A stretch of 64,000 nt of DNA from positions 1 to 64,000 of the forward strand of contig WPIO01000154.1 of assembly GCA_009760855.2 (NCBI GenBank), written 5' to 3'. The notes beneath the pieces are model-generated. The model was not told where the DNA came from and did not search any database. It worked only from the letters and a program-made list of their open reading frames with translations. This stretch comes from Cristatella mucedo. Its lineage: Eukaryota > Bryozoa > Phylactolaemata > Cristatellidae. Positions within the stretch are counted from its first letter, which is position 1, and every line of letters starts with the position of its first letter. This document shows positions 42,101 through 45,100 of the stretch, one piece after another. The position numbers and the translations under genes are program-made.

Positions 42101-45100
42101 TTGTGCATAGAAATCATATCGGCAGGAGGATGTACATAAATGGCGAAAAGAAGTAAAAAAGTAAGCCCTGCATCTGGTCATGCTATCTTTATAATGCTGT
42201 AACTTGCCTGGAAAGAGATAAAGCTACCTAGGGGCGCTATACAAATATATTAGTAGTAGTAGTATAGCAGTAGTATAGTAGTAGTATTATCCATGGGATA
42301 CGACCAGTTTTAAGGGCTCGTTGGATGACAGTTGGCGTTAGCAACTACACTCCGAAATCTCAGACTAAGCTACGACCTACACCGCTTCGGCAGTGGCGAG
42401 TTATCTACCCGTTTGCTTTGTAACATTTAGTATGTTTACATGCTACATCGAATCCTCCCCTGCATTAGTACAGCAGAGCTACTTCGTTTCCAGGATTTGT
42501 ATGCTTCGAGTCCCGTTTTGATGGCGCCTTCTCAGGAATCGGATCTGACCTTCAAAGCCACAGAGGGTTATAGGCTTATAGGGTTATAGGCGTATAGACT
42601 TACAGGCGGTGATCCATAATGGCTCACTAGGTAAGGTGGTTGCTTTTCACGACCTCGCCCCGAGGCCATGGGTTCGAATCCTGTGGTGGGCGATCCTTTA
42701 TCGCCACTGCAAGTGGTGGTGATAGCCGCTAAGGATTTTCTGTCGCTATACAAAAATAGGCTGTTAAATCAGCTAGTATTTATTTATTTTATAGGCTTAT
42801 AGGCTTATAGCTTCTGCTCAGGTTCATACTTCAGCTCAAAAAAGGACTGTAAAGCACATCGCGGTAGACGTAATGAAAAGGTCGATGCAGCGAATAGATT
42901 CGAAGCATTTGCTACACTTTGAGACGCTATCTTTCATTTGCCATTCATACTGTCATTGCAATCGCCGAGTGCGCCCGAAAGCACCAAACCTGGCAGCTGT
43001 ACTCGAAGCTGGTACACCAAAATGCAATGAAGTAGGCGTGGCCTTCAAACTTCCATCTCCAGCTGAGTACCACCGTGGACGAGTTGAGCTTTCTTACCAC
43101 TATGTCGTCCACGGGCTTGACTGCAACGGCACATCGATTGGTGGCTGCACACGGCGACACGCAGCGACACCGCTCGGGCAGAGCACTGTTGTAGCGCATG
43201 CAGGACAAAGCAGTGCTCACCGGCATGCTCTGGGGGAATTGACAGCCTTCTAACGGTATGGTCATCGCCAGCACCTCCCGCTGTAGCTGGCCTAATGCTT
43301 ATCGTCACATTGCTGTCGGCACGATGACAGTGGCTGAAGTTCTGAGCACTTCCTGCGATCACGTACTCTTCTGGCGTCGATGTGGAACTGTGAACTACAA
43401 CCTAGAGTGATACAAACGCGTGTGAATTACAGGTGGGATGAACTGCTTTGTGACTTTACTTTTTTCTAGACAGAATTTGTGTTTATGTGGGCAATGCAGA
43501 TTGGCGACTTTCAGTCATTCGATGAGATTCTACAGCTGCTCGTGCGTTCATTTAGGCAGGTGGAGAACTTTGTTGACATTCACACCCAGTTTCCCTCATA
43601 ATCCCAGCAAAGACACTATAGCAAGAATTGGGAGACCAGCTAAAATCTATTAAAATATTGAACCTGGCAAGGTAATTCTACTCAGGACTTGGACCTAGTC
43701 ACGCTGCTGCGTAGTCAGCACTTCTGCTAGTATTTAATTACCTTCTCAGGAATGTGAGTCTAGGTCAGTGGTTCTCAGCCTTCCTAATGCCGCTACCCTT
43801 AGGTAAAGTTTCTCATGTTTTGGCCACCCCCGACCATAAAATTGTTGTTTGGCAATGAGGAAGTGCGTGTTTTCCGGTGGTCTTAGGCGACCCCCTGTGA
43901 AAGTGTCGTTCGACCCCCGTAGGGGTCGCGACCCACAGGTTGAGAACCGCTGGTCTAGGTAGAGTCCTCCAGTTCTGTTGGACCTTCCGACAGCACTTGA
44001 TATAATGTATCACTCAGTCCTTCTGGCGTGTACAACCGTTTCACCTTGATGTACCTCTTTCCAGTGCAATGCAGTGATTAGGCCCAACCCTAGCAGGAGA
44101 TTTCAGTGCAGTCCGCGGCCCCCTTTGAGACCATACCTACAGTTCCCATGGTTCCGAAACGTGGAACTCAATCTACATCAAGCCAACCATTTACTCGACG
44201 AAATTTAAAAGGAAGCTCGACATCCGCCATCTCTTTACAGCCATCGCCGCTTTCTTGCGAATTGTACTGTGCTTCTTACTCGAGAAACTGTCATTGCTAA
44301 TACTACTAGAGCTGTACCGACTAGTTAATTTTCGCTTTTTTTCTGCCGAATACAAGTAATTTAACATCTACCTATTCGGCTTAATACATGCAGTGTACAG
44401 AATAGATCTAAAGAAAAGATTAAAAATGTAAACTGTAAGCAAAATTTAATTTAATTTAACTTAATAAACTAAAATTAAGCAGTTATTGGCGAGTAATTTT
44501 GTGTCATTCACCAGCGAAATAAACCCGATATGTGTATTATGTTAATGAAAGAGCAACTTCAGTTCAGTCATTTTAGCACTCGCGTTTGAAGAAACAGCTG
44601 TCACGTCACCACCATTCGCATTTGGAAACACAACCACTATTATGCATAATACCGAATCGCTACTTGCCTCACTGCTCAGCCCCGAAGCGAAAGTTTGGAA
44701 CAGCCCTAATTATTACTGATCTGTTAATGTGCTTCATTTCCAGCATATTAAAAGTATCTAGATCTTTTGCAGCAAATGTAAAGTGCCTAGTAAGAGATTT
44801 AAGTTTCCTGACGGTGCTATGCAAATGTATTATTATTATTATAGAGATAAAATATTTGTATATATATAATTTTACAGAATATTCAGCTAAATTCTTGTAC
44901 ATGCATTCTATACAGGTAGATGTACGTATATATAAGGCCTGTATACCTTCACACGCATACCTACCTATACACAAAGATATTTACAGGAGCACAGCTTAAA
45001 CGTCTTGTTAGTAGCAGCCTAGGAGTTAAGATTGATATATATATATATATATATATATATATATATATATATATATATATATATATATATATATATATAT

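What the first reader, a model, noticed from the sequence alone, without database searches (positions are those of the whole stretch)
43758..43960. SPIN-like hAT MITE with exact 8-bp target duplication
The 187-bp element has near-matching terminal inverted repeats, a perfect gtctaggt duplication on both sides, and internal blocks matching my recollection of SPIN elements. SPIN is a documented horizontally transferred hAT family with a patchy distribution, reported from tetrapods and also from Rhodnius and the pond snail Lymnaea. If the host is an invertebrate, this adds to that record. The identical duplications suggest a fairly young insertion.
Basis: partly seen in the sequence, partly recalled or inferred. 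Interest (0 to 1): 0.75.

Follow-up and report, generated by a model that had tools for sequence, protein, structure and literature searches.

The report
SPIN jumping gene in an invertebrate
A short passenger copy of SPIN, a jumping gene known for crossing between distant animals, sits in an invertebrate genome that carries well over a thousand traces of it, which may add another spineless host to the record of this cross-species traveller.

Summary
The window's genome holds 1,377 places within 3 mismatches of its 25-bp 3' motif, 0 for the reversed control. A recalled SPIN interior absent from the window finds more copies, up to 93%; the consensus of 11 of them differs from recalled SPIN by 4 substitutions and one 3-base gap in 296 columns. 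Two 3.1-3.3 kb copies have broken frames. The host's COX1 uses the invertebrate code. 'Fairly young' does not hold: this copy is 10.8% from consensus; the estimated mean is about 9%. Verdict: a member of a known family in an invertebrate host. SPIN or a SPIN-like hAT is already in print from Rhodnius and Biomphalaria. Host name and phylum are undetermined, so novelty of the host is open.

The parts
43758..43765 (.). left target-site duplication GTCTAGGT (nnnTAnnn)
   Evidence: identical to the right copy; TA at positions 4-5 as in 12 of 12 exact duplications among 39 fetched copies
43766..43952 (+). 187-bp non-autonomous SPIN element (MITE)
   Evidence: of 39 fetched copies 33 are 186-188 bp
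43766..43781 (+). 5' terminal inverted repeat, 14/16 to the 3' end
43937..43952 (-). 3' terminal inverted repeat
43766..43846 (+). 5' SPIN block: this copy 85% to recalled SPIN; the family consensus here is 80/81
43847..43866 (+). short middle, where longer copies hold the SPIN interior
   Evidence: short and long host consensus share 81 bp and 93 bp of ends at 100%
43867..43952 (+). 3' SPIN block: this copy 94% to recalled SPIN; the family consensus here is 85/85
43953..43960 (.). right target-site duplication GTCTAGGT

Best explanation
A dead, internally deleted passenger copy (MITE) of the hAT transposon SPIN. An autonomous SPIN entered an ancestor of this invertebrate, very probably by horizontal transfer. 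Its transposase recognised the ~16-bp inverted ends and subterminal blocks, cut copies out and inserted them at staggered 8-bp targets with a central TA, giving the flanking duplication. A deletion derivative that kept only ~81 bp and ~93 bp of the ends was mobilised in trans and far outnumbers the longer forms. The transposase copies found are broken, so the burst appears to be over, and copies have drifted about 9% from the consensus. Shown: ends, duplication, copy numbers, long and autonomous-sized relatives, broken frames, divergence, invertebrate host. Inferred: trans-mobilisation and cut-and-paste chemistry (from hAT biology), and horizontal entry (from near identity, in non-coding DNA, to SPIN as recalled from tetrapods).
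For: Structure and duplication. Genome copies: 40 scored of 2016 candidates, on 30 contigs; 1,377 motif places within 3 mismatches vs 0 control, 160 exact. 38-copy consensus equals recalled SPIN ends at 165/166. The 148-nt recalled interior finds 40 scored of 107 candidates, up to 93%; 35 places carry its 25-mer within 3 mismatches. Consensus of 11 long copies: 4 substitutions and one 3-base gap in 296 columns against recalled SPIN, leaving out a ~25-bp junction that differs. Two copies of 3,288 and 3,110 bp with both SPIN ends and duplications of 7/8 and 8/8. Duplications: 12 of 39 exact (11 of 38 without near-duplicate L011), 22 of 39 within one mismatch, these 22 with TA on at least one side. 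Host: AGR read as Ser and TGA as Trp in COX1 on a 21-kb contig, with a 93.2% copy inside nuclear contig C166, which also carries SPIN copies.
Against: No database SPIN sequence could be reached: the reference is recalled, and the founding SPIN papers are not held. Of five transposase pieces none had a relevant Pfam match, and the one piece given to the PDB had no match, so calling them a SPIN transposase rests on linkage to SPIN ends plus recall. 14 of 39 fetched copies have no recognisable duplication (more than 2 mismatches). Horizontal entry was not tested with relatives of the host. The long form's ~25-bp junction differs from my recalled version.
Confidence: 0.93

Rival explanations
1. 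A MITE of another hAT family (another Charlie/Buster-type element) that only shares terminal repeats with SPIN.
For: Inverted ends of this kind are shared by several hAT families (recalled). Five places with relatives of the transposase piece at 27-38% exist in the genome.
Against: The match is not confined to the ends: 165/166 positions over 81+85 bp and ~200 bp of interior in longer copies.
Confidence: 0.04
2. A vertically inherited ancient hAT family of this invertebrate lineage that predates or resembles SPIN.
For: The family is spread over at least 30 contigs, so it has been resident for some time.
Against: Copies lie only about 9% from consensus and the consensus is nearly identical, in non-coding DNA, to SPIN as recalled from tetrapods, which is not expected after separation of invertebrates and vertebrates.
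Confidence: 0.02
3. Vertebrate DNA contamination of the assembly.
For: The assembly does contain non-host sequence: contig C3 looks bacterial.
Against: 1,377 motif places, long-form copies in a contig of 24.8 Mb, duplications differing from insertion to insertion, and host-type mitochondrial DNA inside SPIN-bearing contig C166.
Confidence: 0.01

Closest known systems
SPIN_NA (non-autonomous SPIN of tetrapods; consensus recalled, not fetched)
   Same: Both ends and ~200 bp of interior of the long host form: 4 substitutions and one 3-base gap in 296 aligned columns.
   Different: The window's form is a shorter deletion derivative (187 bp) with its own ~20-bp middle; the long host form has a different ~25-bp junction.
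SPIN-like hAT of the snail Biomphalaria glabrata (PMC5440852, one passage read)
   Same: An invertebrate genome with about 1,000 copies of a hAT with significant identity to SPIN, not recent, no intact transposase reported there: the closest parallel in print that I saw.
   Different: Sequence not compared. By recalled COX1 proteins the present host is not a pulmonate snail.
SPIN of Rhodnius prolixus (SPIN_NA_12_RP, SPIN_NA_13_RP named in PMC11614815, passages read)
   Same: Non-autonomous SPIN in an invertebrate.
   Different: Sequences not held, so not compared. The host here is not Rhodnius by its COX1 protein (recalled comparison).
SPIN elements of the western painted turtle (385, PMC4054807, passage read)
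   Same: Same family by name.
   Different: The present host has an estimated ~1,700 places carrying the 3' motif in 572 Mb.
A second, young hAT of this genome (Dimer_Tnp_hAT)
   Same: hAT superfamily.
   Different: Different termini (the end in view begins TAGGGCTGTACC); no SPIN-end match in 30 fetched loci, whose other 29 match L062 at 99-100% over 1.3-2.2 kb.

Membership tests
hAT superfamily | 8-bp target-site duplication | tested here: met
   GTCTAGGT twice; 12 of 39 copies exact, 22 of 39 within one mismatch, 14 of 39 beyond two. Definition as in PMC11008031 passage.
hAT superfamily | short (~15 bp) terminal inverted repeats | tested here: met
   14/16
Buster-group hAT | target consensus nnnTAnnn (recalled) | tested here: met
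   12 of 12 exact duplications have TA at positions 4-5; 22 of 22 within one mismatch have it on at least one side
SPIN | SPIN terminal and subterminal sequence | tested here: met
   38-copy consensus 165/166 to recalled SPIN; reference is recalled, not from a database
SPIN | SPIN interior in longer copies | tested here: met
   reference recalled
SPIN | transposase of the SPIN/Buster type in autonomous copies | tested here: inconclusive
   3.1-3.3 kb copies with broken frames; nothing relevant in Pfam for 5 pieces, nothing in the PDB for 1 piece
SPIN | patchy, horizontally acquired distribution | not testable with these tools
   no relatives of the host are held (stated)
MITE | short, non-coding, uniform length, high copy number, sharing ends with a longer element | tested here: met
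   33 of 39 fetched copies 186-188 bp; 1,377 places with the 3' motif against 35 with an interior motif or 107 first-look interior candidates; ends 100% shared between short and long consensus

The most novel reading that the evidence does not exclude
The host belongs to an invertebrate phylum or class in which SPIN has never been recorded, so this is a further independent cross-phylum invasion by the same transposon, and the host (or a parasite or prey shared with vertebrates) could be a link in the SPIN transfer network.
Probability: 0.4. Interest if true: 0.62.

Novelty: new member of a known kind. Interest (0 to 1): 0.45.

Why it matters
SPIN is one of the best-known cases of a DNA transposon crossing between distant animals, and the invertebrate hosts that I saw in print are few. 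A genome with an estimated ~1,700 SPIN ends, a measurable divergence and identifiable broken autonomous-sized copies gives an invasion that can be dated against those of tetrapods, and lets the vector question be tested once the host is named.

Tried and rejected
Early guess of a lamprey host (receptor-like FN3 frame, GC, LINEs) was dropped: COX1 uses the invertebrate mitochondrial code. A flatworm guess, made after no phosphagen kinase was found (which had no positive control), was dropped because the two AAA codons read as Lys at sites I recall as conserved. Attempts to name the phylum did not resolve it: one globin-like frame, triosephosphate isomerase, molluscan haemocyanin domain with no match and no positive control, a scrambled mitochondrial gene order.

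Independent SPIN copies were sought in viral contigs (none), bacterial/archaeal contigs (none; two 20-bp matches with no further similarity, about what I reckon chance gives), phages and plasmids (none), printed DNA strings in papers (none) and Rfam (none). The hAT dimerisation domain search gave 138 matches; 63 belong by score to a younger hAT without SPIN ends in the 30 loci fetched; the 75 weaker matches were not examined.

Divergence of the 38 best short hits (mean K2P 0.063) and of 11 long copies (mean 0.100) was not used as an age because both sets were picked by similarity; the whole-genome exact/near-exact ratio was used instead.

Literature: six searches on SPIN, a seventh on vertebrate transfers, and term look-ups in eleven papers (one search had no hits). 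In them, invertebrate SPIN is reported for Rhodnius and a SPIN-like hAT for Biomphalaria glabrata.

Full report
WHAT IS THERE. Window 43766-43952 is a 187-bp element flanked by two identical octamers, GTCTAGGT, at 43758-43765 and 43953-43960. Its ends are inverted repeats that agree at 14 of 16 positions. Among 8-bp direct repeats 60-3500 bp apart in the window, two pairs enclose inverted ends of at least 12/16, and this one is the better. A 25-bp motif of its 3' part occurs once in the window, with one mismatch, and in none of 100 shuffles.

THE SAME ELEMENT ACROSS THE GENOME. The window's assembly, 572 Mb in 688 contigs as held, was searched with the element: 2016 first-look candidates, of which 40 were scored and matched, on 30 contigs. 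I fetched the 39 other than the window itself. Of these, 33 are 186-188 bp long; 12 have exact 8-bp duplications, 22 have duplications within one mismatch (the 12 included) and 14 have more than two mismatches; the 12 exact ones carry TA at positions 4-5. One of the 12, L011, is the near-duplicate of the window locus. The 3' motif occurs at 1,377 places within 3 mismatches and at 0 places for the reversed control; 160 are exact. These places were not sorted by element length.

IS IT SPIN? No SPIN reference could be reached: the founding papers are not held and no library here holds transposon DNA. I therefore typed a SPIN_NA consensus from memory after seeing only the window copy. The window copy matches it at 94% over 86 bp and 85% over 81 bp. 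The consensus of 38 other copies, obtained afterwards and leaving out the window and L011, matches it at 85/85 and 80/81, although the window copy differs from that consensus at 20 of 186 positions. The recall thus predicted bases that the window does not show. A second test used 148 nt of recalled interior that the window lacks: it found 107 candidates, of which 40 were scored, up to 93% identical. Eleven of the 20 are complete and about 310-330 bp long; nine were set aside (partial or of other length). The consensus of the eleven differs from recalled SPIN by 4 substitutions and one 3-base gap in 296 aligned columns (211 and 85), plus a ~25-bp junction that does not match. The short and long host forms share 81 bp and 93 bp of ends at 100%.

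AUTONOMOUS-SIZED COPIES. Among the 20 fetched long loci, L094 has SPIN ends 3,288 bp apart and L100 3,110 bp apart, with duplications of 7/8 and 8/8. They are 83% alike. Both carry several open pieces on the strand opposite to the SPIN_NA reading, interrupted by stops or shifts. The longest such piece, 192 aa in L100, finds itself and 12 other matches: six at 45-80% over fragments at four places (C676, C111 which is L094, C658, C332), five of the six with stops; one at 33% in the C111 copy; and five at 27-38% elsewhere. Of five pieces none had a relevant Pfam match; the one piece given to the PDB had none. That they resemble Buster-type transposases is my recollection. No intact SPIN transposase was found; the domain search for hAT transposases instead brought up a different, young hAT.

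AGE. If every copy had the same divergence d, 160 exact of 1,377 within 3 mismatches of a 25-mer gives d of about 0.090 (sampling range 0.084-0.097) and about 1,700 places in all. The window copy lies at 0.108 (K2P 0.116) from the consensus, a little above that mean. The 38 best short hits average K2P 0.063 (range 0.033-0.100) and the 11 long copies 0.100 (range 0.069-0.171); both sets were chosen by similarity. A perfect duplication in two octamers says little about age. The insertion, with the same duplication, is also on contig C307 in a stretch 97.2% identical over 3.2 kb, which may be the other haplotype or a duplication. Without a host rate I give no date in years.

HOST. COX1 lies on a 21,008-bp contig, C688. 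In 447 codons it has 8 in-frame AGR codons, which excludes the vertebrate code; they fall at sites that I recall as serine in other animals. It has 11 TGA read as tryptophan and 2 AAA that fit lysine. This is the invertebrate mitochondrial code, and argues against tunicates, echinoderms and flatworms. A 93.2%-identical COX1 stretch (768 columns) sits inside nuclear contig C166, which carries SPIN copies, so this mitochondrion belongs to the SPIN-bearing host. By recalled COX1 proteins the host is neither Rhodnius nor a pulmonate snail such as Lymnaea or Biomphalaria. Phylum not determined; gene order is cox3-atp6-cox1-nad3 with nad2 and cox2 on the other strand (gene names recognised by eye).

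HOW IT WORKS. Shown: inverted ends, 8-bp duplications with a central TA, shared ends between 187-bp, ~320-bp and ~3.2-kb forms, a large excess of places with the end motif (1,377) over places with the interior (35 by 25-mer; 107 first-look candidates), broken long copies. Inferred from hAT biology: transposase from long copies bound the ends of short copies in trans, cut them out and inserted them at staggered 8-bp targets; the short form won because it needs only the ends. Inferred from near identity in non-coding DNA with a sequence recalled from tetrapods: entry by horizontal transfer. Vertical descent since invertebrates and vertebrates parted would not be expected to leave such similarity. 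Donor, route and direction are unknown.

COMPARISON AND NOVELTY. SPIN in Rhodnius is described in PMC11614815 (passages), SPIN transfers into several mammals in PMC5857283 (passage), 385 SPIN elements in a turtle in PMC4054807 (passage). PMC5440852 reports in the snail Biomphalaria glabrata a hAT of ~1,000 copies with significant identity to SPIN, not recent, without intact transposases (passage): the closest parallel that I saw. The present element is a member of that known family in an invertebrate host. Whether this host is new to the record cannot be said without its name; the searches are listed under Tried and rejected. I class it as a new member of a known kind.

CONTEXT IN THE WINDOW. 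The window is rich in LINE fragments. A protein-like feature with weak support is a fibronectin-III-like frame at 32370-33209 on the minus strand, just under Pfam's cut-off (24.7 against 25 bits). Any effect of the element on the host was not tested.

Noticed in passing
G000, e.g. L052, L056, L062, L065, L070: A different hAT: 63 places score 69-78 bits for Dimer_Tnp_hAT, with open frames of up to ~640 aa (one reads 1,947). In 30 fetched loci the other 29 match L062 at 99-100% over 1.3-2.2 kb; the end in view is not SPIN's. A very recent, possibly live hAT burst in the same genome.
   Followed up: partly
window 36197-37251 and 61869-62923; 4805-5548 and 11670-12417: Two LINE families (L2/CR1-like by eye) with copies 93-96% alike; one frame, 35704-37020, has a reverse transcriptase match.
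   Followed up: no
window 42608-42777, also 5549-5714 and 26262-26412: A repeat of ~165 bp with a tRNA-Lys-like head; the copy at 5549-5714 sits exactly between two halves of a LINE copy, so it is probably a SINE.
   Followed up: partly
L109 (G000 C3, around 391.5-395.2 kb): AT-rich (34% GC) stretch with adjacent secF-like and triosephosphate isomerase genes without introns: probably a bacterial symbiont or contaminant in the assembly.
   Followed up: partly
L117 (G000 C166:4375626-4376390): Copy of mitochondrial COX1 in a nuclear contig, 93.2% identical to contig C688.
   Followed up: yes
L115, L116, L118 (G000 C688, 21,008 bp): Mitochondrial contig with scrambled gene order (cox3-atp6-cox1-nad3; nad2 and cox2 inverted) and a long stretch without recognised protein genes after nad3.
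   Followed up: partly
window 22480-23019 (-): Ubiquitin-like frame resembling UBFD1 (name recalled); PDB 1v86 at E 4.4e-5.
   Followed up: no
window 42292-45476 and L004 (C307): 97.2% identical over 3.2 kb; C307 is a 64,036-bp contig: unmerged haplotype or recent duplication.
   Followed up: partly
window 15823-16239 and 45035-45191: Long microsatellites: about 417 bp of (CA)n at 98% and 157 bp of pure (AT)n.
   Followed up: no
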